DNA of 38,601 nt, from NCBI GenBank assembly GCA_002434245.1, contig DJJR01000061.1, positions 1 to 38,601 on the forward strand, read 5' to 3'. Numbering within the stretch: the stretch's first letter is position 1; each line of letters starts with the position of its first letter. Positions 418 to 36,798 of this stretch are shown here, one piece after another. A program made the translations under genes and the position numbers. The notes under the pieces were generated by a model, which did no database searches, was not told the DNA's origin, and saw only the letters and a program-made list of their open reading frames with translations. The DNA is from Pelosinus fermentans (GTDB lineage Bacteria; Bacillota; Negativicutes; DSM-13327).

Positions 418-468
418 GGTTGACCAGAAGAAAAGCTGGAGACGTACGTGTCTTTGGCTTTTCTTTTT
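418..468 (+). promoter_or_regulatory. attenuator leader of D1K1 (hairpin plus terminator)
   Basis: Sequence GA then CCAG (424-427), an A-rich loop, CTGG (436-439), followed by AGAC. The terminator stem AAAAGCTGGAGAC (431-443) pairs over 13 positions, counting G-U, with GTCTTTGGCTTTT (449-461) and is followed by a T run. The upstream hairpin and the terminator share CTGG, so the two structures exclude each other here. Same architecture as the other leaders in this window. Confidence 0.7.
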
Positions 469-508
469 TTTATTTGATTTAAAAATGGTTGCAAAAGGAG
501 AAAAGGTG

Positions 509-1957
509 ATGAGTATAAATTTAAGCCAACCAGCAGTGGAATTAAGAGAATCCAGACTGAAAACAATCACTGGCTATGAAGGCGATGCTGCTGAATTACT
601 CAGTAAAAATGATATTCCCAATAGGGAAAGGTCCTTTACCCAGTGTGGCTCATGCAGTGCTGACCAGGTAATGAATCTGCTTACCCAGATTCAGGATGCC
701 GCTGTTGTAGAACATGGTCCTGCAGGTTGTGCAGGTGATATTCCTATGCGTAACGGTGTATTTCGGACAGGTAATAAGAGAATGGGCTATAATGTGAAAT
801 ATCTCAATACCAATCTTGATGAAAAAGATACTATTTATGGCGGCGGTGCCAAGCTGGAAAAAGCAATCAGGGAAGCTAAGCGTAGATTCAATCCCAAAGC
901 GATTTTTGTGACCACTACTTGTGCATCAGCCATCATTGGTGACGATGTTCCTGGTATTTGCAATGAGCTGGAAGAAGAATTCGGCATTCCGGTAATTGCC
1001 ACCTTGTGTGAAGGATTCCGCACCAATATCTGGGCGACGGGCTTTGACTCGGCCAATCATAGCATCTTACGGAAAATTGTCAAACCAGCACGCCAAAAAC
1101 AGCCGGATTTAATCAATGTTATTAGCTTTGAACATAAATTTTTGTATGAAAGTGTTTTTCGGCAGCTTGGCCTTAGAACAAATCATATTGTGCCACTTTC
1201 AACTGTGGAGGAATTAGAGCGCATTTCAGAAGCAGCGGCAACGGTGCAGTACTGCGAAACATTGGGGAGCTATCTTGCTGCTGGGTTGGAGGAGCATTTT
1301 GGTGTGCTGGAAATCAAAGCCCCTGCTCCTTTCGGTATAAAGGCCTCCGATGAATTATTAAGAGAGATAGGACGGGTTTTTCATAAAGAAGAAGAGGTTG
1401 AAAAAGTAATTATTTCCGAAAAGGAAAAAATTGCTGAGGATCTTGAAAGGCTACGAGGGCGATTAACAGGAAAAACAGCCTATATTGCTGCTGGCGGTCC
1501 TCTCGCTTATAGCATTATTGCCTTGGTTAAAGATCTAGGCATGGAGGTGGTGGGAACTAGTGTCTGGCATCATGACCAAAAATATGACAATGATGATGAA
1601 CGGCTCAATTTCCTTAGATTTGGCGTGGAAACTTACGGTAATTTTAAGGTTGGGGTCTGCAATAAACAAGCTTTTGAAGTTACCAATGCGATTAACAAAT
1701 ATAAACCTGATATTGCAATTACGAGACACCTTGCCACAGTTTGGGCGGCAAAATTGGGAGTTCCCTCTATTTTTGCCGGCAACGAGCCCACAGAAATGCT
1801 GTATGATGGGCTAATTCGTTTTGGTCAATCCATCGATGATGCCATTTCTAATCCTGCTTATATCAAAAATGTAGCAAAGCACAGCAAGTTACCCTATACA
1901 GACTGGTGGCTCAAGCAAGGTACCTATTCATTTTTAAGGAGCGAACAAAATGTCTGA
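509..1957 (+). CDS. nitrogenase-like catalytic subunit, NifD/MarD type (D1)
   Basis: Alpha-type subunit of a nitrogenase-like reductase (component 1 / oxidoreductase type 1 family), 482 aa, presumed to form a heterotetramer with the K protein that follows. Visible landmarks: Cys46 and Cys49 (QCGSC), Cys74 in HGPAGCAGD, Cys138 in TTTCASAIIGDD, a CEGFR box at 167-171, and Cys249 before a TLGSYLAAGLEEHFG segment that aligns with the FeMo-cofactor cysteine region of NifD. The position of NifD His442 reads EPTEMLYDG, so the histidine is absent. The closest known role is methylthio-alkane reductase, C-S bond reduction for sulfur salvage; the substrate is an inference. Start ATG 509 follows AAAGGAG at 494-500; a frame from 485 is less likely. 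K1 overlaps its 3' end by 8 nt. Confidence 0.88.
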   Translation: MSINLSQPAVELRESRLKTITGYEGDAAELLSKNDIPNRERSFTQCGSCSADQVMNLLTQIQDAAVVEHGPAGCAGDIPMRNGVFRTGNKRMGYNVKYLNTNLDEKDTIYGGGAKLEKAIREAKRRFNPKAIFVTTTCASAIIGDDVPGICNELEEEFGIPVIATLCEGFRTNIWATGFDSANHSILRKIVKPARQKQPDLINVISFEHKFLYESVFRQLGLRTNHIVPLSTVEELERISEAAATVQYCETLGSYLAAGLEEHFGVLEIKAPAPFGIKASDELLREIGRVFHKEEEVEKVIISEKEKIAEDLERLRGRLTGKTAYIAAGGPLAYSIIALVKDLGMEVVGTSVWHHDQKYDNDDERLNFLRFGVETYGNFKVGVCNKQAFEVTNAINKYKPDIAITRHLATVWAAKLGVPSIFAGNEPTEMLYDGLIRFGQSIDDAISNPAYIKNVAKHSKLPYTDWWLKQGTYSFLRSEQNV

Positions 1958-3275
1958 AATTATACAAGGACCGCGTCACGGCTGTGCGTTAGGAGCCCAG
2001 CAGACGGTAGTGGCAATTGAAAGAGCCATTCCTATTTTACACGCAGGACCAGGCTGTGGTTCCAAGCTGCATAGAGGCTTATCTCTTGCAGGAGGATACC
2101 AAGGTGCTGGGTATGCTGGGGCAGATGCGATCCCATGCACGAACATGATTGAAAAAGACGTAGTTTTCGGTGGTACAGATAAATTAAGAGATGTGATTGA
2201 GGGTACGCTGAAAATCATGGATGGTGATTTCTTCGTTGTCTTGACAGGTTGTACTGCTGATATTATTGGCGATGACGTAGGCAGTATAGTGAGCGAGTTC
2301 AGAGAGCTGGGCGTGCCCATTGTTCATGCGGAAACAGCAGGATTTAAGGGGGATGCCTATAAAGGGCATGAACTTGTGTTGGAAGCTATTATCAAACAGC
2401 ATTTAAAGCCTGCCGCACAAATTGAAAAAGGACTTGTCAATGTATTTGCAAGTGTTCCCAGGCATGATCCATTTTGGGAAGGTGATTTGAACGAAATAAA
2501 AAAATTACTGGCAGGCATAGGACTCAAAGCGAATATCTTGTTTGGTTACAATAGTGGAGGAATCAAGGCATTAGAGGCGATTCCGGCGGCACAATTCAAT
2601 TTAGTTGTTTCTCCTTATATTGGTCTTAAGATAGCAGAATTACTCGAAGAAAAGTTCCAAACTCCCTATCTTCATTATCCAATATTGCCGGTTGGCGGCA
2701 TAGAGACATCAAACTTTCTGAGAACAATCGCTGAATTTGCAGGTACTTTATCGGAACAGACGGAGAAATTTGTTGCTCAGCAGGAAGAAGAATTTTATCA
2801 TTATATTGTGCGTGCAGCAGATGTACTTACAGAATACAGACTAAATCAGCCGAAACGTTTCTATAATATAAATGATGCCTCTTATGCCCTTGGCTTTAGT
2901 AAGTTTTTGGTGAATGAACTAGGCTATTTTCCCATTCACCAGTTTATTAATGAGGATGTTCCTGAGGAATATAAAGATACTATCGAAGGTTATTTTAAAG
3001 AACTTTCACCAGAGATTTCTTCCGATATAACCTTTACCCAAGACGGTGGAGCCATTGAAGATAAGATCCGTTCGATAAAAGCATTAACCGCTCCTTTAGT
3101 ACTTGCCAGTTCATGGGAATTTGATATTGCAAAAGAGATATCAGGTCTGCATCTTAGTGTAGGTTTGCCGATTATCGACCGTTTGATTTTGCATCACACC
3201 TATGTAGGCTATAAGGGTGGCCTTAATCTTGTAGAAGACATCTACAGTAGATTGCTATCTAAGAATCGTGAGTAG
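1950..3275 (+). CDS. nitrogenase-like catalytic subunit, NifK/MarK type (K1)
   Basis: Beta-type partner of D1, 441 aa. It keeps all three P-cluster-type cysteines: Cys12 in GCALGA, Cys36 in HAGPGCGSK and Cys101 in LTGCTADIIGDD. A further Cys63 lies in IPCTN, shared with K2, K3 and K5 but not with KR. C-terminal repeats of the Rossmann-like fold follow, with SSWEFDIAKE and a VGYKGGLNLVEDIYS end typical of this family. The protein lacks the long N-terminal extension of canonical NifK. The ATG overlaps the D1 stop by 8 nt with AAGGAG just upstream, indicating translational coupling and a 1:1 complex. Likely role: with D1 it houses an 8Fe- or 4Fe-type relay cluster and a NifB-derived active site. 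Function is inferred from the family. Confidence 0.88.
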   Translation: MSEIIQGPRHGCALGAQQTVVAIERAIPILHAGPGCGSKLHRGLSLAGGYQGAGYAGADAIPCTNMIEKDVVFGGTDKLRDVIEGTLKIMDGDFFVVLTGCTADIIGDDVGSIVSEFRELGVPIVHAETAGFKGDAYKGHELVLEAIIKQHLKPAAQIEKGLVNVFASVPRHDPFWEGDLNEIKKLLAGIGLKANILFGYNSGGIKALEAIPAAQFNLVVSPYIGLKIAELLEEKFQTPYLHYPILPVGGIETSNFLRTIAEFAGTLSEQTEKFVAQQEEEFYHYIVRAADVLTEYRLNQPKRFYNINDASYALGFSKFLVNELGYFPIHQFINEDVPEEYKDTIEGYFKELSPEISSDITFTQDGGAIEDKIRSIKALTAPLVLASSWEFDIAKEISGLHLSVGLPIIDRLILHHTYVGYKGGLNLVEDIYSRLLSKNRE

Positions 3276-3348
3276 TAGAGATGAAAGATAGCAACCTGAT
3301 GATAGTTAGTCTTTATGGTATTTTCAGAAAATAAACATAGTATGGGTA

Positions 3349-3375
3349 TTGACAAGAAATCTTCGTGGATATACT
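3349..3375 (+). promoter_or_regulatory. candidate promoter of metQ remnant
   Basis: TTGACA (3349-3354) with TATACT (3370-3375) at a short 15-nt spacing. TATGAT/GATAAT-like alternatives follow directly, so the -10 is not settled. Confidence 0.5.
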
Positions 3376-3404
3376 ATGATAATAGACAATCGAGCGTAAA
3401 TACA

Positions 3405-3468
3405 TTGCTGACTGATTTGAGAATCAGAGGCTGTATCCCATTCATTTTGGGGATGCAGCTTTTTTTAT
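3405..3468 (+). promoter_or_regulatory. attenuator leader upstream of metQ remnant
   Basis: GA is followed by the stem CTGATT (3412-3417), loop TGAG and AATCAG (3422-3427). The terminator stem AGGCTGTATCCC (3428-3439) then pairs with GGGATGCAGCTT (3450-3461) ahead of seven T. Both structures are intact although the gene behind is broken. Confidence 0.72.
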
Positions 3469-3573
3469 TTTCAATTGTCAAAAGCGGTCAATGTATATGA
3501 TTGGGAGGCGGTTCAATACAAAGGAAATATTATAATTATGAGCAGCTTAATTATTTTTGAGAGGGTGATTTAC

Positions 3574-4199
3574 GTGTTGAAGAAAGGTATTATCTTTAAA
3601 ATGGTAGTTGGAATTCTCGGCGTTGTAACAGCTGCCAGTGTATTGGTGGGATGCTCGTCAAGTAAAAAAGAGAGTGTCCCAGCTGTCACTGCAAAAACAG
3701 AAGTAACAGTCAAAGTGGGGGCAGCATTAGTACCACATGCTGAAATATTGAATTTTATTAAGCCGAAATTAAAACAAGAGGGTATTAATCTTGAAGTAGT
3801 TGTGCTGGATGATGAAGCGCAATTAAATCCTGCACTGCAAACAAAGCAGATCGATGCCAACTATTTTCAGCATGTTCCTTACTACGAGTCAGTAGCAAAA
3901 GAAAAGGGCTATAGTTTTGTTGTAGCTGCGAAAGGGTAGAAGCTGCTCAGCTTACCAGATCCTTACCTGATGTTGATGGTGCTATCATCAATACTAATTT
4001 TATCCTCGAAGCGAAAATCGATCCTAAGAGCGCGATTTTTAGAGAGGATGCAAATTCTCCTTATGCAAATGACTTGTATGTAAGAAAAGGTGAAGAAAGC
4101 CGACCAGAAATAAAAAAACTGGCAGAGGTTTTAACGTCTCCTGAGGTTAAAAAGTTCATCCAAGATAAATACGGAGTTGCTGTGGTTCCTGCCTTTTAA
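3574..4199 (+). pseudogene. metQ: metQ-like methionine-binding lipoprotein, internally deleted and frameshifted
   Basis: Remnant of a MetQ/NlpA-family substrate-binding lipoprotein of the methionine ABC importer. The first part has a signal peptide with lipobox LVGC, then the mature domain through TKQIDANYFQHVPYYESVAKEKG and VVAAK. That frame stops at TAG 3937-3939. The next in-frame homology resumes directly in another frame with VEAAQLTRSLPDVDGAI and runs to VAVVPAF and TAA 4197-4199. Compared with a usual MetQ of about 270 aa, roughly 65-75 residues (the segment after VVAAK that normally starts with H-EPMG-like sequence) are missing and the join is out of frame. Start GTG 3574 follows GAGGGTG. 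No metN or metI lies next to it. Leader and terminator remain intact, so the loss looks recent. Confidence 0.82.
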
Positions 4200-4249
4200 A
4201 TATGTGATGGAAATTAACGATTAGATTAATGAATATTTGATTCGGGAGG

Positions 4250-4291
4250 AAACTGAAGGCTGAGCAGTCAAATCTGCTCAGCCTTCAGTTT
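4250..4291 (+). terminator. terminator after the metQ remnant
   Basis: Perfect inverted repeat with 18-nt arms: AAACTGAAGGCTGAGCAG (4250-4267) and its complement at 4274-4291, loop TCAAAT. It starts with the same ACTGAAGGCT as several leader terminators, but no upstream GA-hairpin or promoter is convincing, and there is no long T run. It may be a plain metQ terminator or a decayed leader of the next operon. Confidence 0.7.
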
Positions 4292-4435
4292 AAAATAGAT
4301 TATCATAAGTAGTCTTTGAGTGATTAGCAGATCGTTATAGCATTAGGGAGAAATGGCATAAATGGATGAGATAAAATCATTAAGTGAATCATTATATCCA
4401 TTTTTACATGCCAACAAGAAAGGAGAGACAAGGTG

Positions 4436-4780
4436 ATGGCGCAGGAGTTATCCCATGTTGTTTGCAAAAATTGTGCAGCTCGTCTTGCTAAATGGTGTTA
4501 TAAACGGTACTGGTGGTTTCGCTTGGTTCGAGAGCCATTGTTATTAGGAATGCGTATCTTGGCCTGGTGGCACGGAATTGATGCCCGAACTCATAAAGTG
4601 CGCAACAATGAATGCCATGGGTGTATCCGCTTTATGAAAGCAGAGCTGACAGCCAAGTCATCCATCTTTTGTTTTTTTGATAAAATTATTGGTAAGAAAG
4701 TCAGCAAATTACGAGACTCTATGCTTACCCAAGATCAATTGGATGAGGCAAAACGTCATGCGCGTGAAGTAAGTAACTGA
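4436..4780 (+). CDS. hypothetical protein with two CxxC motifs, upstream of D2K2
   Basis: Basic, Trp-rich protein of 114 aa that I do not recognise. Features: CKNCAARLAKWCYKRYWWF near residues 10-28, a middle segment with WWHGIDARTHKVRNNECHGCIRF in which CHGC forms a second CxxC, and a charged helical C-terminus (LDEAKRHAREVSN). The paired cysteine motifs suggest a zinc or iron-sulfur site. The gene starts at ATG 4436 (or GTG 4433) behind AAAGGAG and ends 90 nt before D2, with no terminator between them, so it is probably co-transcribed with D2K2. A role in maturation or electron delivery is conceivable, but the sequence does not show it. Confidence 0.65.
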   Translation: MAQELSHVVCKNCAARLAKWCYKRYWWFRLVREPLLLGMRILAWWHGIDARTHKVRNNECHGCIRFMKAELTAKSSIFCFFDKIIGKKVSKLRDSMLTQDQLDEAKRHAREVSN

Positions 4781-4870
4781 GAGTGGATAATTTCATAATA
4801 AAGAATAGAGAGTTGTCATTGGCTAGACGGTATAAATTCATAGGATTGAGTAAATTAGGGAGGACTTTTA

Positions 4871-7802: not shown

Positions 7803-8639
<837 letters not shown>

Positions 8640-8694: not shown

Positions 8695-8753
8695 CAAAAA
8701 AGGCTATGTAGATAGGAATATCTACATAGCCTTCAGTTTACCTACTGATCAGC
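8695..8753 (-). promoter_or_regulatory. attenuator leader of nifH (minus strand)
   Basis: On the minus strand: GCTGA, stem TCAGT, loop AGGTAA, ACTGA (plus-strand 8748-8733), directly abutting a terminator with 15-nt arms AAGGCTATGTAGATA and its complement (plus-strand about 8699-8733) and a T run ending near 8695. Confidence 0.72.
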
Positions 8754-8827
8754 ACTACCAAATGAGCTGTTAAATTAAAAAAACTAATTTTAACAACTGA
8801 TAAATAATAATTATTCTTTTAAACAGA

Positions 8828-8969: not shown

Positions 8970-9052
8970 CCTATATCTGCTGAAATATGGCAGATAGGAA
9001 CTGGTCAGCTAATAAACTGAAGGTTAAAGAATTTATTTCTTTGGCCTTTTTT
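8970..9052 (+). promoter_or_regulatory. attenuator leader of D3K3, with an additional 5' hairpin
   Basis: First hairpin CCTATATCTGC / GCAGATAGG (8970-8998), not seen in the other leaders. Then the common part: GG, TCAG (9005-9008), loop CTAATAAA, CTGA (9017-9020), and terminator AAGGTTAAAGAA (9020-9031) pairing fully, with two G-U, to TTCTTTGGCCTT (9037-9048) and a T run. Confidence 0.7.
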
Positions 9053-13908: not shown

Positions 13909-13964
13909 TTAACTGACTGAGAATAAAAGAGGTTAAACTACAAAATAGTAGTTTGACCTCTTTT
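13909..13964 (+). promoter_or_regulatory. attenuator leader of KR-DR-cysK (weakest hairpin)
   Basis: Contains CTGACTGAG, an A-rich loop and AAGAGG. The terminator is a 17-bp stem, AAAAGAGGTTAAACTAC (13925-13941) with GTAGTTTGACCTCTTTT (13948-13964). The small upstream hairpin is poor (CT/AG only). Alternatively TTAAC (13909-13913) can pair with GTTAA inside the terminator arm, which would be an antiterminator. Confidence 0.55.
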
Positions 13965-17982: not shown

Positions 17983-18011
17983 TTGAATTCTAATTCCAAA
18001 TGCAGTAATAT
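17983..18011 (+). promoter_or_regulatory. promoter of desulfurase-ThiF unit
   Basis: TTGAAT (17983-17988), 17-nt spacer, TAATAT (18006-18011), only a few bases before the leader GA. Confidence 0.6.
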
Positions 18012-18017
18012 TTAAAC

Positions 18018-18110
18018 GACTAGTAATTTAGAAAAACAAAATTAGGACTGAGAAGATATTTAAGGCTAAGATCGTTGTATCCTGATAAAGGAGATGTCTT
18101 AGTCTTTTTT
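18018..18110 (+). promoter_or_regulatory. attenuator leader of desulfurase-ThiF unit
   Basis: GACTAG, then stem TAATTT (18024-18029), A-rich loop, AAATTA (18039-18044), GG. Terminator arms GACTGAGA (18046-18053) and TCTTAGTC (18097-18104) enclose a longer internal structure and end in T7. This copy has the longest terminator loop. Confidence 0.62.
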
Positions 18111-20418: not shown

Positions 20419-20426
20419 TGTTATAA

Positions 20427-20493
20427 GACTGATTAGAAAACTAAAGGTCAAAATAAATTTGGTTTACGGCCAAGTTTGCTTTGATCTTTTTTT
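20427..20493 (+). promoter_or_regulatory. attenuator leader of metallophosphoesterase
   Basis: GACTGA, stem TTAG (20433-20436), loop AAAA, CTAA (20441-20444), directly running into terminator AAAGGTCAAA (20443-20452) / TTTGATCTTT (20480-20489), with an inner AAATTTGG/CCAAGTTT stem and a T run. About 130 nt follow before the gene, in which I see only the ribosome binding site. Confidence 0.7.
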
Positions 20494-22029: not shown

Positions 22030-22102
22030 TTGGGTAAGCTGGCTGTATGAAACGACAGAGGCTTCGAGCAAAATATGTATTTTGCTCGAAGCCTCTTTAT
22101 TT
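22030..22102 (+). promoter_or_regulatory. attenuator leader of D4K5
   Basis: CTGG, stem CTGT (22033-22036), loop ATGAAACG, ACAG (22045-22048). Terminator AGAGGCTTCGAGCAAAATA (22047-22065) pairs completely with the following complement up to GCCTCT and a T run. The upstream stem is CTGT/ACAG, a full compensatory change from the CAG/CTG type. Confidence 0.7.
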
Positions 22103-22125
22103 TCGGATTAACTAGGAGGTTCGGT

Positions 22126-23608
22126 ATGAGTGTCATTAATCTTAAAGCATCAGAGGTTCAAACCCGAGAAGCACGTCTGGGGTCTATTACGGGATTTGCA
22201 GGAACTGCAGGTGAACTGGTTGGGTGCGCGCGCGCAGGCACGTTGAAAGAAAGTGAAAGAAGTTTTAGCCAATGTATGGGATGCAGCTCGGGCAATGCGT
22301 TTTGCCAATTTTCTATGATTCAGGACGCTATTGTTGTCAACCACGCTCCAGTCGGTTGTGCTGGGGATTTCTTTACTTTTAATTTTGTCTATCGGGTGGG
22401 GCAAATGGAGAGAGAGAGCTTTCTCCTGTAATTGGAAGATACTTCAGTACAAATATTGAAGAGCAAGATACTATTTTTGGTGCAACCCAGAAGCTTGCTG
22501 ATACGATTCGTAAAGCCTATGAAAGAGTCAAGCCAAATGCGATTTTTGTTACGACTTCTTGTGCATCTGGAATTATTGGAGATGATGTGGAAGGGGTTGC
22601 AAATGACTTATCAGAAGAATTGGGGATTCCTGTAATTGCTTGCTTTTGCGAGGGTTTTAAATCAAAGATTTGGACTACAGGGTTTGATGCGGCATATCAT
22701 TCCATTGTTAGAAAGCTTGTAAAGCCGCCAGAAAAAAAATCAAATAAGGTCAATGTTATAAATTTTGGGGAAGTAAAATATTTGATGAACTGTTGAATCC
22801 ACTAGGGTATGAAGTAGACTATATTGTTCCATTTTCAACAGTAGCCCAGTTAGAACATATTTCAGAAGCTGCAGCTACCATTCAAATTTGTTCCACCCTT
22901 GGGACTTATATTGGTGCTGCTTTAGAACAGGTTTATGGTGTGCCTGAGATCAAATCTCCCCCGGCTTATGGTATAGCGGGTACAGATCGCTGGATGAGAG
23001 AAATCGGCAGAGTTCTTAATAGGCAAGGGGAGATCGAAGAGGTGATTGCTAAGGAGCATGAACGTGTATTGCCGAAGCTTGAGGAATATCGTAATAAACT
23101 TCAGGGTAAAACAGCCTATCTAACGGCTGGTGCTGCCCACGGGCACGCTTTAATTGCACTTTTGCAGGAATTGGGAATGACCGTGCAGGGGGCGGCAATT
23201 TTTCATCATGATCCTATTTATGATAATGGTGATGTGGTCTCAGATGCATTGGCTCATGCTGTCAATACCTATGGTGATGTTCCCAATTATAACGTTTGTA
23301 ACAAACAAGCTTATGAATTAGTTAATATTTTAAATAAAGTAAGACCCGATATCATGATTGCCAGACATGGCGGTATGACGATGTGGGGAGCAAAACTGGG
23401 GATTCCTACACTTTTAATTGGCGATGAACAACTCAGCTTTGGCTATCAGGGGGTTCTAAACTATGCGGAAAGAATTTTGGAATCCCTTGATAACAAAGAG
23501 TTTGTCATTAACCTTGCTAAACACAGTACGATGCCTTACACCAAATGGTGGCTGGAACAAGACCCATTTTCTTTTCTTAGGAGTGACTTAGATGTTAAAA
23601 CTTATTGA
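22126..23608 (+). pseudogene. nitrogenase-like catalytic subunit, NifD/MarD type (D4), two frameshifts
   Basis: Alpha-type subunit split into three frames. Part 1 (ATG 22126 behind AGGAGGT) has Cys50/Cys53 and Cys78 in HAPVGCAGD and stops at TAA after VGQMERE. The continuation ELSPVIGRYFSTNIEEQ is two bases off: removing one GA unit from the (GA)5G tract 22408-22418 gives VGQMERELSPVIGRYFSTN, which aligns without gaps to D3 RGQFSRELEYTNINYINTN. Part 2 carries TTSCASGIIGDD, CEGFKS and NVINFG, then stops at 22793. Adding one G to the G4 run 22767-22770 restores GSKIFDELLNPLGYEVD and the rest, including the cofactor-type Cys in IQICSTLGTYIGAALEQ and SFGYQG (Phe at the His442 position). The restored length is about 493 aa. 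Pseudogene, repeat slippage or sequence error are all possible. Confidence 0.85.
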
Positions 23609-24943: not shown

Positions 24944-25002
24944 CTGACTAGGTGATGAACTAGAGGCTGTATTTCCCAGGTAATTTGGAATGCAGTCTTT
25001 TT
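24944..25002 (+). promoter_or_regulatory. attenuator leader of TrmO-NifX-radical SAM unit
   Basis: CTGA, stem CTAG (24948-24951), loop GTGATGAA, CTAG (24960-24963), then terminator AGGCTGTATTTCC / GGAATGCAGTCT with one bulge and a T5 run. Confidence 0.68.
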
Positions 25003-26734: not shown

Positions 26735-26756
26735 AGCAAGTAATTGAATATCTTTC

Positions 26757-26818
26757 TGCTGATCAGATAACTGAAGGCTAAGGAATTCCCTAATAGGGGG
26801 AGGTTCTTAGCCTTTTTT
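26757..26818 (+). promoter_or_regulatory. attenuator leader of YeiH-type transporter unit
   Basis: GCTGA, stem TCAG (26763-26766), loop ATAA, CTGA (26771-26774), sharing its last A with terminator AAGGCTAAG (26774-26782) / CTTAGCCTT (26806-26814) and a T run. A clear type example of the element. Confidence 0.75.
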
Positions 26819-28236: not shown

Positions 28237-28563
28237 ATGGTAGAATATATTACACGTATTACGATGAAGGTCATTAACAGGGAAGAGTTAGATACTAATA
28301 ATCTCAAAAAGGTCGGCGAAATTGATGTAGATTGCGTTCGTAGTTTTGGTCATCAACTGGCAGAACGCAGTGAGCGTGTTGCAGCGATGATGGAGAGATT
28401 AGCAGAAAAAGGATTTACTTTTACTGCCAATCAAGATTCTGTTATTGCTGAATCAACAAAAATAGAAGCGCAAGCTGCTAAGATATATTTATTACAAGAG
28501 GGATTCCATGACTCAGAGTTTCAAGTGTATTTGGAATACACTCGTAAATGGGGAATGTTATAG
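28237..28563 (+). CDS. hypothetical small cytoplasmic protein
   Basis: Protein of up to 108 aa that I do not recognise. The predicted make-up is alpha-helical and charged (HQLAERSERVAAMMERLAEKG, then DSVIAESTKIEAQAAKIYLLQEGFHDSEF) and it lacks Cys motifs apart from one Cys near residue 32. It begins one base after the YeiH-type stop, so it should be translated with it; an alternative start at ATG 28264 would give 99 aa. No good ribosome binding site is visible for either start, fitting translational coupling. It may assist or regulate the transporter. Confidence 0.6.
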   Translation: MVEYITRITMKVINREELDTNNLKKVGEIDVDCVRSFGHQLAERSERVAAMMERLAEKGFTFTANQDSVIAESTKIEAQAAKIYLLQEGFHDSEFQVYLEYTRKWGML

Positions 28564-29601: not shown

Positions 29602-29649
29602 TCCATAGATACAATTGAAAATAGTAAACTTGTCAGGAAACTAACAAGC

Positions 29650-29754
29650 TGGTCAGACAAACTGAAGGCTACAGAAATGATTTATTTCTGTAGCCTTCAG
29701 TCTAAGAAAAAGAGAGTTCATTTGGGGGTATAAGCTCCTTTAACTAGGAGCTTT
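29650..29754 (+). promoter_or_regulatory. leader of nifB-transporter unit with two terminator-like hairpins
   Basis: GCTGG, stem TCAG (29653-29656), loop ACAAA, CTGA (29662-29665), overlapping a long perfect stem CTGAAGGCTACAGAAAT / ATTTCTGTAGCCTTCAG that lacks a T run. A second hairpin AAGCTCCT (29730-29737) / AGGAGCTT (29744-29751) with T5 follows. A weak promoter (TTGAAA 29615-29620) precedes. The first hairpin may also end nifH transcripts. Confidence 0.6.
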
Positions 29755-29797
29755 TTACGAGAGTAAGATAGATGAAATAGAAAGAAGGAGTATTTAT

Positions 29798-31063: not shown

Positions 31064-31102
31064 AATATAAATATACATGAAGGAGAAGGAGAGACGAAAT
31101 AA

Positions 31103-31885
31103 ATGAAGGATAGTTTTAAAGATTTTACTGCGAGACTTGTTGATTTTTCCGGCATTATTACTTTTTTTCTGCTATGGGAAATTCTACCTCGTATCGGAGT
31201 AGTAGATGGGCAATTTATACCACCCATATCAGAAGTACTGGTAGCTTTGTGGATACTAGCCTCTGATGGTTCTTTGTTTATTCATATTGCTGCCAGTTTA
31301 CAGCGAACAGTTATTGGCTTGGTTCTTGCTATTGTTGTTGCCGTTCCTATGGGATTTATATTAGGAGGGGTATTTCCAGCGCTATCAAGGCAACTCAGAC
31401 CATTGTTTCGCCTATTTGGACAAATTAACGGTTTCTCTTTATTTCCTGTTTTTATGTTGTTCTTTGGAATTGGAGAAAGTGCGAAAGTGAGTATTATTTT
31501 TTGGTCTACTCTTTGGCCGGTACTTTTTACTACGATCTCCGGTGTTCAGCAAGTGGATCCTTTATATATAAAAAGTGCACGTTCTATCGGTGCAAATAAA
31601 TTCATCATCTTCCGTAAGGTTCTTCTGCCGGGAGCGGCCCCTGTTATTTTCACTGGTGTGCGTACTGGGGCAACCATTGCCTTCCTCTTACTTATGGCGG
31701 CTGAAGTGATTGGAGCCAGTGCTGGTTTGGGTTGGTTAATTCACAATTCGGCAATGAATAATATTATTCCCAGGTTATTTGCTGGCGTTATCACGATTGC
31801 AGCACTGGGGGTATTTATCACCTATTTAATTGATTATGTGGAAAATAGTATTGTGGATTGGAAGCATGCAGGAAAAGAAAATTAA
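31103..31885 (+). CDS. ABC transporter permease, SsuC/TauC type (first)
   Basis: Inner-membrane permease of 260 aa from the nitrate/sulfonate/taurine importer class. About six membrane segments, with the ATPase-coupling EAA-type loop at roughly residues 155-175 (IKSARSIGANKFIIFRKVLLPGAAP). LLWEILPRIG near the N-terminus and AAEVIGASAGLGWLI near 203-217 are family blocks. It follows nifB by 40 nt, behind AAGGAGAAGG, and is itself followed by a second, similar permease, so the two may form a heterodimer. The association with nifB suggests that it imports the organosulfur substrate or a precursor (such as molybdate-like or homocitrate-like ligands). The substrate cannot be read from sequence. 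Confidence 0.88.
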   Translation: MKDSFKDFTARLVDFSGIITFFLLWEILPRIGVVDGQFIPPISEVLVALWILASDGSLFIHIAASLQRTVIGLVLAIVVAVPMGFILGGVFPALSRQLRPLFRLFGQINGFSLFPVFMLFFGIGESAKVSIIFWSTLWPVLFTTISGVQQVDPLYIKSARSIGANKFIIFRKVLLPGAAPVIFTGVRTGATIAFLLLMAAEVIGASAGLGWLIHNSAMNNIIPRLFAGVITIAALGVFITYLIDYVENSIVDWKHAGKEN

Positions 31886-31934
31886 ATTTTTCATGGAGAT
31901 TTGCTAGCGATTTAAATTAGAAAGGAGAAGGAGT

Positions 31935-32774
31935 ATGGAGATTGTGTTAGATAAAGTCACAGCAAGTGGTAATGAAAAGAAACTAAATATATTTCGCAAA
32001 GTTCTAAATCGGGCTCTAAATATTTTACATAATGGGATATCCATTATTATCTTCCTGGTGCTTTGGGAGATTGCCCCTCGTGCCGGTTGGGTTCCAGAAA
32101 CATTCATTACGCCTCCCAGCCTTGTGTTAAATACGCTTTGGGATTTACTGATAACCGGAGTTTTGACAAAACATATTGAAACGAGTATGTTTAGGGCTGT
32201 TGTTGGCTTTATACTTGCTGCTATTGTTGGTGTTCCATTAGGATTTTTCTTAGGAGGCGGATTTAAATTATTTGAACGTATTGTAACTCCTGTTCTACGT
32301 TTGTTAAATGCGGTAAATCCATTCTCATTGTTTCCTGTATTTATTTTATTGTTTGGTATTGGTGAAATATCTAAAGTAGCGATGATTTTCTGGGTGTGCC
32401 TGTGGCCAATTATGCTTAATACGACCACAGGAGTTAAAAATGTGGATAGCTTATTGATTAAATCTGCTCGCTCTATGGGCGTAACGGGGAAGGAGCTGTT
32501 CTTCAAGGTTATATTATTGGCTGCATTACCCAGTATTTTTCATGGTTTAAAAACCAGTTGTGCTACTGCATTTTTCATGCTGATAGCTGCTGAAATGATT
32601 GGTGCCAGCAGTGGATTAGGATGGTTAGTATTTAATGCCCAGACTAATTATCAAATTCCTAAATTATTTGCGACTACCGTTACGATTTCGATATTAGGAT
32701 TGTCTCTGAATTATTTATTTACTGTATTGGAAGGGAGGCTGCTTAGTTGGCAAGAACGTCCTGCGGAATATTAA
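31935..32774 (+). CDS. ABC transporter permease, SsuC/TauC type (second)
   Basis: Second permease, 279 aa, clearly paralogous to the one before (FLVLWEIAPRAGWVPE, IKSARSMGVTGKELFFKVILLAALPS coupling loop, AAEMIGASSGLGWLVFNAQ). An N-terminal extension of about 25 residues (charged, EIVLDKVTASGNEKK) precedes the first membrane segment. ATG follows AAAGGAGAAGGAG. It lies 49 nt after the first permease and 61 nt before the binding-protein gene. Two different permeases plus a binding protein would need an SsuB/TauB-type ATPase, and none is in this unit. Confidence 0.88.
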   Translation: MEIVLDKVTASGNEKKLNIFRKVLNRALNILHNGISIIIFLVLWEIAPRAGWVPETFITPPSLVLNTLWDLLITGVLTKHIETSMFRAVVGFILAAIVGVPLGFFLGGGFKLFERIVTPVLRLLNAVNPFSLFPVFILLFGIGEISKVAMIFWVCLWPIMLNTTTGVKNVDSLLIKSARSMGVTGKELFFKVILLAALPSIFHGLKTSCATAFFMLIAAEMIGASSGLGWLVFNAQTNYQIPKLFATTVTISILGLSLNYLFTVLEGRLLSWQERPAEY

Positions 32775-32835
32775 AAGGTAAATGAGTGAATGTGACCTGC
32801 GTAGTTAATGAAAAAGTTGTAAGAGGGGAATGAAG

Positions 32836-33876
32836 ATGACTGAGGAAAAAACAATTAAAAAGATTTTGGGAGGAATTATTGGCCTGGTAGTTATAGGACT
32901 TGTTGCTTATGGTGCTAATCTTGGTAATAAACATGCAGCTGCTGGTAATGAGGCAGCTGCTGCATCTAATGAAGGTTTGTTTCCGATTCGTACTATTTCT
33001 CAGACAGCTTGCAGCTCTACTCCATGGGTTGTAACCGACCAATTGGGCTTTTTCAAAGAAGAAGGCTTACAAGTCGTTTACACCGGTGATACCCAGCCCA
33101 ATCAAATTATTCCATCCATCCTAAATGGTTCGAATGATGTAAGCAATGCTCACCCCAATAATCTTGCGGTTGCTATAGCTGGGGGTGCTAAAATAAAGGG
33201 GGTTGTGCGAGCTGGTATCGATCCGACGCCAGATAAAGATCCGAAACTGCGTCACATGAACTGGTATATCAATCCAAATGTAACTCCTGACATTCATACC
33301 TTTGCGGATTTAAACAAGTTACCAGGGCAGGTTAAATTTTCATTAATAACACCAAATCAATGCTCTGATTTTTTAGGCAATAGTATTGCTGATAAAAATA
33401 ATGTTCCTAGAAGTAAAATTGAATGGGTAACGATGCCTGATGTTCAGGCCGTACAGGCTCTAAAACAAGGATTAGTAACCGTGTCTGGTGTGCATCCTCC
33501 TTTCTATAAATCAATGGAAGATGCAGGTATGGTTAAAATTGCCGATAGCTTGGATGCTGGTGTAGGTATTTCAGGCGGTATAGGTTATTACTATTTCACT
33601 ACTGATTTTATTGAGAAGCATCCAGATATTATTAAAAAATTTGCCAGAGCGATTGCCAAAGGGCAAAAATGGGCAAATGATCATCCGGAAGAAGCTCGGA
33701 AAATGACAGAAGACTGGATCCATGTACCAGTTAATGCCACTCACTATTATGCTACGGATACTAAAATAGTAGAGTCGGAGATTGATCCTTGGCTTGCAGA
33801 CTTAGAAAATTCAGGGGTACTTCCTAAAGGTAAAATTAAACCTTCGGATATGGTTATTCATACCTTTGATAATTAA
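32836..33876 (+). CDS. ABC transporter substrate-binding protein, SsuA/NMT1-like
   Basis: Extracytoplasmic binding protein of 346 aa. An uncleaved or cleaved N-terminal hydrophobic segment (residues 8-27, ILGGIIGLVVIGLVAYG) lacks an obvious lipobox, so it may be anchored. The mature part has FPIRTISQTACSSTPWVVTDQLGFFKEEGLQVVYTG, the usual beginning of the SsuA/TauA/NrtA family, and a C-terminal domain with FIEKHPDIIKKFARAIAKGQKWANDHPEEA. ATG 32836 is preferred (AGAGGGG eight bases upstream); ATG 32830 is too near that site. It is the last gene of the nifB-permease unit and is followed by a strong terminator. The ligand is likely a sulfonate or thioether-like compound, inferred from context only. 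Confidence 0.86.
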   Translation: MTEEKTIKKILGGIIGLVVIGLVAYGANLGNKHAAAGNEAAAASNEGLFPIRTISQTACSSTPWVVTDQLGFFKEEGLQVVYTGDTQPNQIIPSILNGSNDVSNAHPNNLAVAIAGGAKIKGVVRAGIDPTPDKDPKLRHMNWYINPNVTPDIHTFADLNKLPGQVKFSLITPNQCSDFLGNSIADKNNVPRSKIEWVTMPDVQAVQALKQGLVTVSGVHPPFYKSMEDAGMVKIADSLDAGVGISGGIGYYYFTTDFIEKHPDIIKKFARAIAKGQKWANDHPEEARKMTEDWIHVPVNATHYYATDTKIVESEIDPWLADLENSGVLPKGKIKPSDMVIHTFDN

Positions 33877-33904
33877 GTAGGGAATACAATATTTCTCTAG
33901 CTGT

Positions 33905-33956
33905 AAAAAAAACCTTCTGTGGAAGAGTGAATATCATTCTTCCACAGAAGGTTTTT
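33905..33956 (+). terminator. terminator of nifB-transporter unit
   Basis: Inverted repeat AAAAACCTTCTGTGGAAGA with its complement TCTTCCACAGAAGGTTTTT around a 10-nt loop, with T-rich exit on plus and A-rich flank on the other side, so it can work in both directions. Confidence 0.85.
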
Positions 33957-33981
33957 CTTTGTAAGAAAGTATAAAAAACAC

Positions 33982-34100
33982 TGAACCGCGAAGGTCACGA
34001 AGAAATGCAAAGGACGCGAAGGAATTCTTATGGATATTTCAGTCTTCAGATTCTTCATATTCTTAGCGCCTTCGCGGTTCAAAAAGTTTTATTATTTTAA
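33982..34100. repeat. intergenic repeat with inverted ends, copy 2 (CGCGAAG type)
   Basis: The left arm TGAACCGCGAAGG (33982-33994) is matched by CCTTCGCGGTTCA at 34069-34081, enclosing further CGCGAAGGA and TTCTTCAT-like segments. The right arm and AT-rich tail resemble the copy at 7720-7767. It lies directly behind the minus-strand ABC ATPase gene. Confidence 0.6.
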
Positions 34101-34777
34101 GACGCGGCGTTATTGTAGACAATTGGTTTTAGTGTTCCATCTTCTAAACGGAAGGTCTGGTCAGCCTGATTTGCCAAATTAGGGTCATGGGTAACGATGA
34201 CGACTCCTGCTCCTTCTGTACGTGCCGTAAGCAGGCACTCTGCTACCTCTTTGGCCAGAACCGGATCAAGGTCATTGGTTGGCTCATCTGCAAGCAAGAT
34301 AGGTGGTTTAAGCAGCAGAGCACGGGCGAGGGAAATTCGTCGTAATTGACCAAGACTAAGTTCTTGTGGTTTATGATCCAAACGATGGCTTAAGCCGAAG
34401 CGTTCCAGCAAGTCTTTAGCCTGTTGTTCCATGTTATCGCCTCTTCTAATAAACCATGCAGGTGCCATGACATTTTCTAAGGCAGTAAGAGAATTGATCA
34501 AACGAGCTCTTTGAAAGACAAAGCCAAGGTACTGTCCACGCAGTTTGGCTAGTTGATAAGAATCCAATCCCCCAATATCAATAGCATCTACCAGTACATT
34601 GCCGGAAGTTGCTCGCTGCAGCAGTCCCATAATAGACAGCAGCGTGGTTTTACCACCGCCAGAGTGTCCAATAATAGCAATTGCAGTTCCTTTCGTCAGG
34701 GTAAAGGAAACCTTTGATAAAATAACATCATCGCCGTACTTCTTTTCAATATTACGGAGTTCTAGTAGAGTGTTCAT
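34097..34777 (-). CDS. ABC transporter ATP-binding protein, LolD/MacB type
   Basis: ATPase of 226 aa. Walker A GHSGGGKTT at 37-45, Q-loop in FVFQRARLINSLTALENV, signature LSLGQLRR, Walker B ILLADEPTNDLD, and the switch histidine in VIVTHDPNLANQAD. The small size and LolD-like sequence assign it to the FtsX-partner exporter class (MacB, LolCDE, lantibiotic or lipoprotein systems) rather than to SsuB/TauB importers, so it is not the missing ATPase of the nifB-linked importer. The partner permease gene ends 12 nt upstream in the same direction. ATG follows AGGAGG. It is the last gene of the minus-strand unit. Confidence 0.9.
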   Translation of the reverse strand: MNTLLELRNIEKKYGDDVILSKVSFTLTKGTAIAIIGHSGGGKTTLLSIMGLLQRATSGNVLVDAIDIGGLDSYQLAKLRGQYLGFVFQRARLINSLTALENVMAPAWFIRRGDNMEQQAKDLLERFGLSHRLDHKPQELSLGQLRRISLARALLLKPPILLADEPTNDLDPVLAKEVAECLLTARTEGAGVVIVTHDPNLANQADQTFRLEDGTLKPIVYNNAAS

Positions 34778-34789
34778 ATTTTCCTCCTA

Positions 34790-35989
34790 TCAATCAAATT
34801 CTCCACGAGTCATAACAGTACTGGGGTCAATGCGACTGCCCTGATGTGCAGGCAGCCAGGCAGCTAAAGCTCCTAATCCAGTAAACACTATGATAATTCC
34901 AATTGCAATGCTGGCAAGAAAACCCCATGAAGGATGAACAAAGGGAAAGGATTGATAAGCTTCTAATAATGTTAAGCTCCCTTTATACAATCCACTTCCT
35001 AATAACAAACCGATAATTGAGCCTGTTAAGGATACGGCTGCCGCTTCGCCGACAATCACCAATCCGATATCCCGTCCTGTTGCGCCAAAGGCCAGATAAA
35101 GTCCCCACTCTGCTTGACGTTCCCATGTCAAGGTATAAAAGCGGGAAAACAGATGCAACAAAGAGGTCAATACAGTTAAAAATCCAATACCACCGATTAA
35201 TATGGCGAAAACGGTAAACTGATCCGCAATACGTTTTTTTACTTCAGCGGCGACAATCGGCTTCATGAGTCCAACTTCCTGAATATCACTTACCACTTTA
35301 TCAATATTGGCATCATCATCAACTTTCACCAAAATAGTGGAAATGAGACCAGATGGAGGTCCCATTTTGTCCCACACTTTTTTTAGTGTTCTATCACCAG
35401 AAACTACCCTTCTAGCCTCATTCATGCTGACTAGCAAAGAGTAGTCAAGAGTCGTTCCCGTTTCTTCGGCGATGGCAATAATGTTGTACCACTTACCTAA
35501 TATAGAGATTTTATTTTGAGCCCAAACCGGTACTTTTGCACCTAAAATCACTTCATCATCTTTAAGTTCGGTTTTGTGCACCTTCTTTAGCCAGGGAGCA
35601 AGAATCCAATCACTGGCAGGGTCATATCCAATCATACGGTTTTTTGTTCCAATATCATGGCAATCTGCTGATAAAGAATGGGTGAAGAATTGAGGCGTAA
35701 CCGAATGTACCCCCTTAACAGCCCGTACGCCATCTACTAGTTCCTTTGGCATGTAAGAATTAGCCGCAGCTCCTCCAAACAAAAGCAGACTGGGTTCTAG
35801 CGTCTCACCAAAGGGGACAATAACGATGTCCGCCCCCATACGCTGCTTAGAAAGCTCCATGCCTGACGAAACTCCGTTATAGACAGCTAAGATGCTAAAG
35901 ACAATAGCTGCGCCAACGGCGATAGAGCCAACGATGGTTAGGCTTTGCAGCCTACGATGCAGTAAGCTTTTCCAAATAAGTAATAGCAA
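34790..35989 (-). CDS. ABC transporter permease, FtsX/MacB type
   Basis: Membrane protein of about 399 aa with one N-terminal membrane segment (QSLTIVGSIAVGAAIVFSILAVY), a large extracytoplasmic MacB-type periplasmic core (QRMGADIVIVPFGETLEP onward) and three C-terminal segments that carry the FtsX domain (FAILIGGIGFLTVLTSLLHLFSRFYTLTWERQAEWGLYLAFGATGRDIG). I chose TTG 35989 because GAGAGGAG lies eight bases before it. An in-frame ATG at 36082 would add 31 residues and overlap DUF4418 by 38 nt. Together with the ATPase it forms a mechanotransmission or export module. The substrate is unknown, and the unit bears the same leader as the sulfur genes. Confidence 0.8.
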   Translation of the reverse strand: MLLLIWKSLLHRRLQSLTIVGSIAVGAAIVFSILAVYNGVSSGMELSKQRMGADIVIVPFGETLEPSLLLFGGAAANSYMPKELVDGVRAVKGVHSVTPQFFTHSLSADCHDIGTKNRMIGYDPASDWILAPWLKKVHKTELKDDEVILGAKVPVWAQNKISILGKWYNIIAIAEETGTTLDYSLLVSMNEARRVVSGDRTLKKVWDKMGPPSGLISTILVKVDDDANIDKVVSDIQEVGLMKPIVAAEVKKRIADQFTVFAILIGGIGFLTVLTSLLHLFSRFYTLTWERQAEWGLYLAFGATGRDIGLVIVGEAAAVSLTGSIIGLLLGSGLYKGSLTLLEAYQSFPFVHPSWGFLASIAIGIIIVFTGLGALAAWLPAHQGSRIDPSTVMTRGEFD

Positions 35990-36044
35990 AATCTTTTCTC
36001 CTCTCAGCAATCCTTTGATTGAATAATGTAAATAAGCTATAAGG

Positions 36045-36446
36045 TTAGCTATCCTTGCTGCTGCCCCAAGCAGTCCAGACAACTCCCGCCCCTGTTACAG
36101 CCAGTAGGGCGGCGCCAATCGTAAGGAAAAAGGTGGTTTTTAAACAAGAACCATTTTCGCAAATGCCGATAGCCCAGGGTTGGGGCAGAAGGATACTGCT
36201 AATTCCCAGCAATATAATGATAAATCCAGCTAATAAGCGGGCTTCGTTTGTACGCAATACCAGCAATGCAGCAGAAACAATAACAGCTAACAACGTGATA
36301 ATAAATTCTGCCTGATAAGTATAATGGCAGGTCATTGGACTGCCTGTCTTTGTAAGTCCATCGCAAATCGGTACAAGTCTCGGCAAAATCAGTAAAAAGA
36401 GACTGATAAAGACTGCAATCCAGGATAGTAGCTTAGACTTTTTCAT
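36045..36446 (-). CDS. DUF4418 family membrane protein
   Basis: Protein of 133 aa with four predicted membrane helices (residues about 6-24, 45-65, 67-88 and 107-127) and a small cysteine-bearing loop pattern: PICDGLTKTGSPMTCHYT after helix 1 and AIGICENGSCLKT before helix 4. The layout is that of the DUF4418 family, which often accompanies FtsX/LolD-type ABC genes in anaerobes. ATG 36446 follows AAAGGAG nine bases upstream; TTG 36455 directly abuts that site. The gene overlaps the likely permease region only if the longer permease start is used. Its function is unknown; the conserved Cys/His loops may bind a metal or form disulfides. Confidence 0.83.
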   Translation of the reverse strand: MKKSKLLSWIAVFISLFLLILPRLVPICDGLTKTGSPMTCHYTYQAEFIITLLAVIVSAALLVLRTNEARLLAGFIIILLGISSILLPQPWAIGICENGSCLKTTFFLTIGAALLAVTGAGVVWTAWGSSKDS

Positions 36447-36451
36447 TTCAA

Positions 36452-36679
36452 TCAACTCCTTTTTTTATGTTCTGATATCATGTTAATGTTGCTCGTTAGC
36501 ATTGTAATCAAGATATCTCTGCTGCTGTTAAGGGCGACAGCACCAGTTAATAAATTAGACTGGTGATGCTCGTGATTTTTGCTGTTGCGAAAGGGTACGC
36601 GGTTTACTCCAGTGTATAGAATCCCAATTCCCAGCAAGAATATCAAAAATGCGATGGCCAAAAACTTTTGTACTGTCAT
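36452..36679 (-). CDS. hypothetical small membrane protein
   Basis: Protein of 75 aa with one N-terminal membrane helix or signal (TVQKFLAIAFLIFLLGIGILYTGVN) and a polar C-terminal part with a His-rich patch NHEHHQSN and a basic end HKKRS. Family not recognised. It is the first gene of the minus-strand unit, with an AGGAGG site upstream, and its stop lies inside the ribosome binding region of DUF4418, so the two are coupled. The His patch might bind a metal; this is speculation. Confidence 0.65.
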   Translation of the reverse strand: MTVQKFLAIAFLIFLLGIGILYTGVNRVPFRNSKNHEHHQSNLLTGAVALNSSRDILITMLTSNINMISEHKKRS

Positions 36680-36735
36680 GATTAGATTTCCTCCTTTATA
36701 ATTTTAAAAATATAAGCATCAATCTGTAAAATAAG

Positions 36736-36798
36736 AAAAGACCAGATCAAAATTTCCGCAGAAAAATTGATCTGACCTTTGGTTATACCAATCAGTCG
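36736..36798 (-). promoter_or_regulatory. attenuator leader of DUF4418-ABC unit (minus strand)
   Basis: Minus-strand reading: CCGACTGA, stem TTGGT, loop ATA, ACCAA (plus-strand 36791-36779), then terminator AAAGGTCAGATCAA / TTGATCTGGTCTTT (14 pairs with G-U) and T run. The stem sequence differs completely from the other leaders yet pairs perfectly. Confidence 0.72.

What the first reader, a model, noticed from the sequence alone, without database searches (positions are those of the whole stretch)
418..36798. A shared hairpin-plus-terminator leader in front of thirteen transcription units: an apparent new attenuator class
Seen directly: after the promoters of D1K1, metQ remnant, nifH, D3K3, KR-DR-cysK, desulfurase-ThiF, metallophosphoesterase, D4K5, TrmO-NifX, YeiH, second nifH, nifB and the minus-strand ABC unit there is GA(Y)/GG, a 4-6 bp stem with a purine/A-rich loop, then AGG(C/T) starting an intrinsic terminator. 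Twelve of the thirteen show a clear stem; the KR copy does not. Stem sequences co-vary: CCAG/CTGG, CTGATT/AATCAG, TCAG/CTGA, TTAG/CTAA, CTGT/ACAG, CTAG/CTAG, TAATTT/AAATTA, TTGGT/ACCAA. In several copies the 3' arm overlaps or abuts the terminator base, so stabilizing the small hairpin (by a protein or ligand) could prevent termination. It does not resemble S-box, T-box, SAM-II/III or the two-hexaloop ANTAR pattern that I know. Units with unrelated genes (purB, kinase-regulator) lack it.
Basis: partly seen in the sequence, partly recalled or inferred. Interest (0 to 1): 0.95.

Follow-up and report, generated by a model that had tools for sequence, protein, structure and literature searches.

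The report
Sulfur-starvation antiterminator hairpin (YezD/OscA box)
Twelve gene groups in this Pelosinus DNA, and many sulfur genes in other Bacillota, begin with the same small RNA hairpin, usually overlapping a transcription terminator, and this switch is likely opened by a tiny protein of unknown function (DUF2292, YezD/OscA) when sulfur is scarce.

Summary
Twelve of its thirteen leaders share one hairpin: P1, a UGA/AG core (U.G pair plus GA/A internal loop) and a covarying P2. Its 3' side overlaps the 5' arm of an intrinsic terminator in 11 of the 12, so hairpin and terminator exclude each other. The cysteine desulfurase leader fails. No Rfam 15 family rings on it. A model built from this genome finds 32 copies in 18 own-genome sources, 1-37 per motif-bearing genome in Negativicutes, and copies in other Bacillota and two Deltaproteobacteria MAGs. 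Many targets are sulfur genes (cysK, cysH, sat, sbp, metN, tau/ssu) or nitrogenase-like genes. The motif co-occurs with the small protein DUF2292 (YezD; distant match to OscA): 60 of 62 motif-bearing Negativicutes genomes have it, 14 of 98 others. Outside Negativicutes the motif often starts just after the DUF2292 stop codon, before cysH, sat or cysK. Best reading: a new RNA antiterminator class with DUF2292 as its likely RNA-binding factor. The RNA switch and sulfur link are well supported; the factor and the direction of control are inferred.

The parts
416..446 (+). antiterminator hairpin before nitrogenase-like D1K1; overlapping terminator 426-467
   Evidence: R2 32.5 bits; terminator; gene Pfam PF00148
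3404..3434 (+). antiterminator hairpin before the metQ-like (Lipoprotein_9) remnant; terminator about 3427-3462
   Evidence: Pfam
8726..8756 (-). antiterminator hairpin before NifH-like gene 8624-7803; terminator 8734-8699
   Evidence: Fer4_NifH
8997..9027 (+). antiterminator hairpin before nitrogenase-like D3K3; terminator 9019-9049
   Evidence: PF00148
13909..13936 (+). antiterminator hairpin (5-bp P1, weak P2) before the KR-DR-cysK unit; terminator about 13926-13963
   Evidence: PF00148, PALP
18000..18110 (+). leader before cysteine desulfurase-ThiF: terminator by eye, hairpin NOT recovered
   Evidence: no R2 hit at E<=2; sequence
20425..20451 (+). antiterminator hairpin before metallophosphoesterase; GAC/GTC P1; terminator about 20443-20489
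   Evidence: Pfam
22035..22065 (+). antiterminator hairpin before broken nitrogenase-like D4/K5; terminator 22057-22096
   Evidence: PF00148
24940..24970 (+). antiterminator hairpin before TrmO-NifX-radical SAM unit; terminator about 24963-24999
   Evidence: Pfam
26755..26781 (+). antiterminator hairpin before YeiH-like gene; terminator about 26773-26815
   Evidence: NCBIfam TIGR00698 match, 94 bits, below its cut-off of 232.6
29645..29672 (+). hairpin before NifB-like radical SAM unit with sulfonate/taurine-type ABC genes; long competing stem but no U-tract found
   Evidence: Pfam
36772..36799 (-). antiterminator hairpin before DUF4418 / FtsX permease / ABC ATPase unit; terminator about 36780-36737
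   Evidence: Pfam

Best explanation
Twelve leaders in the window carry one conserved RNA hairpin, which in eleven of them overlaps an intrinsic terminator, and this hairpin is predicted to be an antiterminator that a small DUF2292 protein (YezD/OscA family) likely binds and stabilises when sulfur is scarce, letting transcription run into sulfur-acquisition and nitrogenase-like genes. Shown: the hairpin (P1, U.G, GA/A internal loop, covarying P2, A-rich loop), its overlap with the terminator, its frequent place before sulfur genes, and its co-occurrence and gene linkage with DUF2292. Inferred: because the terminator is predicted far more stable (mean -21.4 against -7.7 kcal/mol), the default is termination and something must hold the hairpin; because DUF2292 tracks the motif best of the two families profiled and often sits just before it, DUF2292 is that factor; because many targets scavenge sulfur, binding happens under sulfur limitation. 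Where DUF2292 heads the operon it would act like GlcT before ptsG (recalled analogy). In Cytobacillus spongiae a SAM-I riboswitch precedes yezD, which would make the cysH operon answer to two sulfur signals in series.
For: RNA: P2 pairs in all gap-free cells over 31 own-genome copies, with changes on both sides in all 4 pairs; 119 distinct copies: 135 cells changed on both sides against 42.8 in shuffles and at most 40 in slid controls; GA/A core and U.G nearly invariant. Switch: 32 of 33 copies have a terminator that starts inside the motif. Regulon. Partner: class draw of 160 genomes 60/2/14/84 (both/motif only/DUF2292 only/neither), Fisher 1e-27; nearest 40 genomes 26/0/2/12 at motif E<0.01; phylum draw 8 of 11 motif genomes have DUF2292 against 61 of 387; genomes behind 19 hand-chosen pattern hits: 11 of 11 with a terminator have it, 1 of 8 without. 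Linkage: 20 of 30 phylum DUF2292 loci have a motif hit at E<=0.1, in 16 of those 20 on the same strand from 10 nt before to 200 nt after the stop codon. SAM-I/yezD/motif/cysH order. Published: oscA encodes a small protein of unknown function in a transcription unit with sbp, and its inactivation gives chromate sensitivity (passages of PMC2996968, and PMC3596284).
Against: No binding, expression or genetic data. Only two protein families (DUF2292, DUF2325) were profiled. Co-occurrence and linkage would also arise if DUF2292 were only another target: the motif lies upstream of DUF2292 genes at C21 (L009), Neobacillus (L273) and Priestia (L274), which fits autoregulation or target equally, and two Sporomusa copies before DUF2292 genes (L175, L188) have no terminator by my scan. 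14 of 74 DUF2292-positive Negativicutes have no motif hit, 12 of them in one family (strict filters lose weak matches); two of these loci show no hairpin after DUF2292. Motif without DUF2292: G729 (58% complete, 3 hits), G736 (one hit), and in the phylum draw G241, whose copy has a terminator though four genomes of its genus g81 have DUF2292. Folds gave no solved RNA-binding relative. The four gammaproteobacterial loci with a hairpin after the gene show no terminator by eye. Some targets have no clear sulfur role (Nudix-like L072, L073, alpha/beta hydrolase L031, a protease in G241). P1 is weak beyond 3 pairs.
Confidence: 0.6

Rival explanations
1. The hairpin is itself a minimal riboswitch aptamer. 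A sulfur-status metabolite such as O-acetylserine, or a cysteine or sulfide derivative, binds the GA/A internal loop and stabilises the antiterminator; DUF2292 is only a frequent member of the regulon.
For: Very conserved small internal loop; control of transport and synthesis genes as in metabolite riboswitches; tandem copies (L033, L270); a convincing copy in G241, where no DUF2292 was found.
Against: About 30 nt with one 2x1 internal loop is small for an aptamer (general knowledge). It does not explain why 60 of 62 motif genomes carry DUF2292 or why the motif often follows DUF2292 stop codons closely.
Confidence: 0.21
2. Another trans-acting protein, not looked for here, binds the hairpin; DUF2292 is a downstream sulfur-starvation effector controlled by it.
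For: DUF2292 genes themselves lie behind the motif in L009, L273 and L274; motif and DUF2292 do not co-occur perfectly.
Against: The only other family tested, DUF2325, also behind tandem motifs, is absent from six motif-bearing relatives, four of them with 3-7 copies (G013, G022, G028, G037).
Confidence: 0.14
3. DUF2292 binds the hairpin but acts negatively or on another step, for example preventing read-through when sulfur is plentiful, or acting on translation, as the terminator-less gammaproteobacterial copies suggest.
For: In L327, L329 and L331 the hairpin sits after the gene without a visible terminator and its 3' arm resembles a ribosome-binding site.
Against: In Bacillota hairpin and terminator exclude each other, so stabilising the hairpin should promote read-through; literature passages link oscA with sulfur starvation.
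Confidence: 0.1
4. The shared hairpin is a spreading repeat or ordinary terminator sequence without regulatory meaning.
For: Many copies per genome; terminators are common.
Against: Stems covary while the core stays fixed; position in leaders, sulfur genes behind many copies, cross-phylum conservation.
Confidence: 0.02

Closest known systems
RAT antiterminator / BglG-LicT-SacY-GlcT (CAT-domain) systems
   Same: About 30-nt hairpin with an internal loop that overlaps the 5' arm of an intrinsic terminator; gene of the putative binding protein often just upstream of the controlled terminator (as glcT-ptsG). The RAT side of this comparison is recalled.
   Different: Different RNA core (U.G + GA/A); candidate protein is a small DUF2292 protein (four scanned, 47-122 residues) with no other Pfam match below E 0.048; sulfur instead of sugar genes.
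ANTAR-responsive dual-hexaloop attenuators
   Same: Small hairpin just 5' of, and overlapping, a terminator in several unlinked operons (recalled).
   Different: One hairpin, not two; loops mostly 4 or 5 nt (109 of 129), 6 nt in only 3 of 129.
SAM-I riboswitch (S-box, RF00162) and T-box leaders
   Same: Transcription attenuation of sulfur and methionine genes in Bacillota (recalled); SAM-I is found in series upstream of yezD in L326 and L242.
   Different: No sequence or structure relation; Rfam does not ring on the motif.
OscA / YezD (PF10055, NCBIfam NF033785)
   Same: The protein family linked here; oscA heads a unit with a sulfate-binding-protein gene and is tied to sulfur starvation in Pseudomonas (PMC2996968, PMC3596284, PMC10433965 passages).
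   Different: Described there as of unknown function; my paper searches showed no link to an RNA element. The Pelosinus tandem proteins score 35 bits, below the OscA equivalog cut-off of 85.

Membership tests
BglG/LicT RAT antiterminators | hairpin mutually exclusive with an intrinsic terminator | tested here: met
   32 of 33 copies have a terminator starting 6-16 nt inside the motif (sequence prediction)
BglG/LicT RAT antiterminators | effector with CAT RNA-binding domain (PF03123) and PTS regulation domains | tested here: not met
   four linked DUF2292 proteins: only PF10055 over a cut-off, no CAT_RBD or PRD listed at E<=5. Whether a BglG-type protein also binds was not tested
BglG/LicT RAT antiterminators | RAT sequence consensus | not tested
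   compared by eye from memory only; looks different
ANTAR dual hexaloop | two consecutive hairpins, each with a 6-nt loop | tested here: not met
   129 aligned copies: loops of 4 nt in 68, 5 nt in 41, 8 nt in 12, 6 nt in 3; the second hairpin was judged by eye only
any Rfam 15 family | covariance-model match on the motif | tested here: not met
   window at E<=1: two hits elsewhere (33863-34038) far below their cut-offs; seven motif-bearing loci at E<=0.1: only SAM-I and Moco elements, not on the motif
DUF2292 (PF10055) | Pfam gathering score 22 bits | tested here: met
   78.6, 68.7, 63.9 and 38.1 bits for four motif-linked proteins
OscA (NF033785) | NCBIfam equivalog cut-off 85 bits | tested here: not met
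   35.4 and 35.6 bits for the two Pelosinus tandem proteins; related, not proven orthologs
protein-dependent antiterminator | protein binds the RNA and causes read-through | not testable with these tools
   needs biochemistry

The most novel reading that the evidence does not exclude
DUF2292 (YezD/OscA) is the founding family of a new kind of very small RNA-binding antitermination regulator (one helix plus beta-hairpin domain of about 50 residues, or a fused pair). With its hairpin box it is the master switch of sulfur starvation in much of Bacillota, with relatives in Deltaproteobacteria and a translational version behind oscA in Gammaproteobacteria.
Probability: 0.48. Interest if true: 0.95.

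Novelty: new variant of a known kind. Interest (0 to 1): 0.88.

Why it matters
It proposes a testable function for a widespread small protein family described as of unknown function (YezD/OscA, tied to sulfur starvation and chromate resistance in Pseudomonas). It would supply a sulfur regulator for many Negativicutes and other Bacillota, with 37 copies at E<=0.05 in one Sporomusa genome. It puts nitrogenase-like gene clusters of unknown substrate under sulfur control, which would point to sulfur-compound reduction and not nitrogen fixation. A protein of about 50 residues with a 30-nt RNA would be a very compact antitermination pair.
Full report
Observation. I read the leaders and annotated the genes. 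The window is contig C49 of a 4.55-Mb genome with 32 Oxidored_nitro matches. The genus is Pelosinus by inference: G004, 'same genus', has the contig length of Pelosinus fermentans JBW45. Re-reading the flanks gave a two-helix structure. The bases 5' of UGA pair with the GGC/GGT that starts the terminator (GC/GC, GAC/GTC, AAC/GTT, GT/AC in different copies) to form P1; UGA faces AG; then comes a variable P2 with an A-rich loop. ViennaRNA folds the core as U.G plus a GA/A 2x1 internal loop in most copies. In 40 dinucleotide shuffles of the window the hairpin with a terminator occurs 0.03 times on average (max 1), against 10 in the window.

Models. R1 was built from eight equal-length copies and rang 25 times genome-wide at E<=10, one of which (C15, L040) is no leader by eye. 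R2 was built from 31 copies of this genome. Genome-wide counts are lower bounds, because only part of the first-look candidates was scored. The desulfurase leader is not recovered; the KR leader is. On 31 own-genome copies all four P2 pairs change on both sides and every gap-free P2 cell pairs. On 119 distinct copies from many genomes 87.8% of cells pair, 135 cells are changed on both sides (shuffles 42.8; slid at most 40), and the core is nearly fixed: A30 and G31 in 119 of 119, U.G in 115, C-G in the other 4. These alignments were fitted to the model, so the slid and shuffled controls matter more than the raw counts; the outer two P1 pairs fail in about half of the copies.

Switch. In 32 of 33 copies tested (32 own, 1 Cytobacillus) an intrinsic terminator begins 6-16 nt inside the hairpin; the exception is window nifB. 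Mean predicted energies over those 32 are -7.7 (hairpin) and -21.4 kcal/mol (terminator). The RNA can form one or the other, and alone it should terminate. Stabilising the hairpin would give read-through. This is prediction, not measurement.

Regulon. Genes behind own-genome copies include a cystine-type ABC system, a second cysteine synthase-like gene, a Cys/Met PLP enzyme, taurine/sulfonate-type binding-protein genes, MetN-type ABC genes, YeiH, DUF2325, DUF2292 and nine groups of nitrogenase-like D/K or H genes (six in the window, three on C21 and C11) (Pfam; other names are my reading of translations). A few have no clear sulfur role: a Nudix-like gene, a small oxidase-like gene, an alpha/beta hydrolase, a metallophosphoesterase and a DUF4418/FtsX/ABC unit. 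In relatives and other Bacillota the next genes read as cysK, O-acetylhomoserine sulfhydrylase, sulfate-binding protein, sulfate adenylyltransferase, APS/PAPS reductase, LarE, MalY/PatB-type enzymes, RuBisCO-like protein, corrinoid methyltransferase parts and metK. These were read, not tallied, and no enrichment test was run.

Distribution. R2 hits 28 of 40 nearest genomes at E<=0.1, with 12-36 copies in the other seven Pelosinus genomes, 62 of 160 class genomes at E<=0.005 and 11 of 398 phylum genomes, the own one included. A Sporomusa genome has 37 at E<=0.05. One pattern scan of named genomes gave 85 stretches. I checked 80 of them: 72 of 87 matches are followed by a terminator by my scan. 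Those include Pelosinus, Sporomusa, Priestia, Neobacillus, Kurthia, Paenibacillus, Heliophilum and two Deltaproteobacteria MAGs. Of the 15 without, nine are in Serratia, Treponema, Smithella, Parablautia, Eisenbergiella (two), Desulfobacterales, Smac51 and Lysobacteraceae and look like chance, two are cut by the locus end (L147, L173), and four are in likely motif genomes (L131, L144, L175, L188).

Partner. DUF2292 (PF10055) tracks the motif. Nearest 40 genomes: 26 both, 0 motif only (best E<0.01), 2 DUF2292 only, 12 neither. Class: 60, 2, 14, 84 of 160; Fisher p 1e-27, not corrected for shared ancestry. Phylum: 8 of 11 against 61 of 387, p 6e-5; of the three misses G149 and G309 look like chance, while G241 has a convincing copy with a terminator before a protease gene and no DUF2292, although four other genomes of its genus g81 have DUF2292. 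Named genomes: I chose 20 of the 85 pattern loci by hand, 19 were held. 11 of 11 with a terminator have DUF2292, among them both Deltaproteobacteria MAGs; 1 of 8 without a terminator (Brevibacillus) has it. R2 was trained only on the own genome, so these tables are not circular for other genera. Closely related genomes are not independent, so the phylum and named tests matter most.

Linkage. Of the 30 phylum DUF2292 loci returned, 20 carry an R2 hit at E<=0.1; in 16 of those 20 it lies on the same strand from 10 nt before to 200 nt after the DUF2292 stop codon, followed by genes that read as sat, cysH, cysK, NifH-like and others. A stricter GA/A descriptor finds the hairpin in 41 of 80 stretches downstream of DUF2292 (two of them look like chance; related genomes included; ten further loci not used) against 20 of 1600 mononucleotide shuffles. 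In Cytobacillus spongiae the order is SAM-I riboswitch, yezD, hairpin starting at the yezD stop codon, terminator, cysH, a phosphate-transporter gene, sat, cysC, a nitrite/sulfite reductase gene. In other places the motif precedes DUF2292 itself (L009 7763; L273; L274 both sides), which would fit autoregulation. In the class of Serratia (Gammaproteobacteria) 5 of 185 genomes have DUF2292; four of the six loci show a related hairpin after the gene (L327, L329, L331 by R2 at E<0.1; L328 and L331 by the descriptor) but no terminator by eye, so another step may be controlled there.

Protein. One domain is predicted as a helix and a beta-hairpin (pLDDT 85); the Pelosinus protein is a tandem pair (pLDDT 74). 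In the aligned Bacillus-type set of 52, T27, QDGK, IQ, EKNEK and R45 are invariant. No solved relative was found. NCBIfam gives a sub-threshold match to OscA, 'sulfur starvation response protein'. Passages of PMC2996968 and PMC3596284 say that oscA encodes a small protein of unknown function, sits with sulfate-transport genes, forms a transcription unit with the sulfate-binding-protein gene, and that its inactivation in P. corrugata 28 gives chromate sensitivity (Viti 2009 itself was not read).

Verdict. A real new RNA attenuator class linked to sulfur genes, most likely worked by DUF2292/YezD. Seen in sequence: hairpin, overlap with the terminator, sulfur genes behind many copies, DUF2292 linkage. 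Inferred: binding, direction, signal.

Noticed in passing
genome G000 (32 places): 32 Oxidored_nitro (nitrogenase D/K-like) matches in one 4.55-Mb genome; many of those on C49, C21 and C11 stand behind the sulfur hairpin, those in the fetched stretches of C36, C78, C60, C72 and C40 do not.
   Followed up: partly
window 3475-4200 and 22120-23608: The metQ-like lipoprotein gene and the D4 nitrogenase-like gene are each split into separate open frames (pseudogenes or sequence errors) although both still carry the leader.
   Followed up: no
L326 3820-4290 (Cytobacillus spongiae) and L242: A SAM-I riboswitch precedes yezD, which precedes the new hairpin and cysH: two attenuators in series.
   Followed up: partly
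L070 9432-9530, L270 334-465, L049 1400-1527: Tandem copies of the hairpin-terminator unit before DUF2325, metK and a cystine-type binding protein gene.
   Followed up: no
L327, L329, L331 (Gammaproteobacteria): After the DUF2292 gene the hairpin recurs without a visible terminator, and its 3' arm (GGAGG-like) could be a ribosome-binding site before the next gene.
   Followed up: partly
L089 556-650 (G241): A convincing hairpin plus terminator before a subtilisin-like protease gene in a genome where no DUF2292 was found.
   Followed up: partly
window 4257-4295: A bidirectional hairpin (CTGAAGGCTGAGCAG...) after the metQ remnant copies the 3' half of the motif; it was not recovered by R2.
   Followed up: no
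L268 790-926: A Moco (molybdenum/tungsten) riboswitch lies near the DUF2292-motif cluster of G419.
   Followed up: no
window 4433-4780 and 28237-28563: Two small proteins of the sulfur units (115 and 108 aa) match no Pfam or NCBIfam family at the thresholds used.
   Followed up: no
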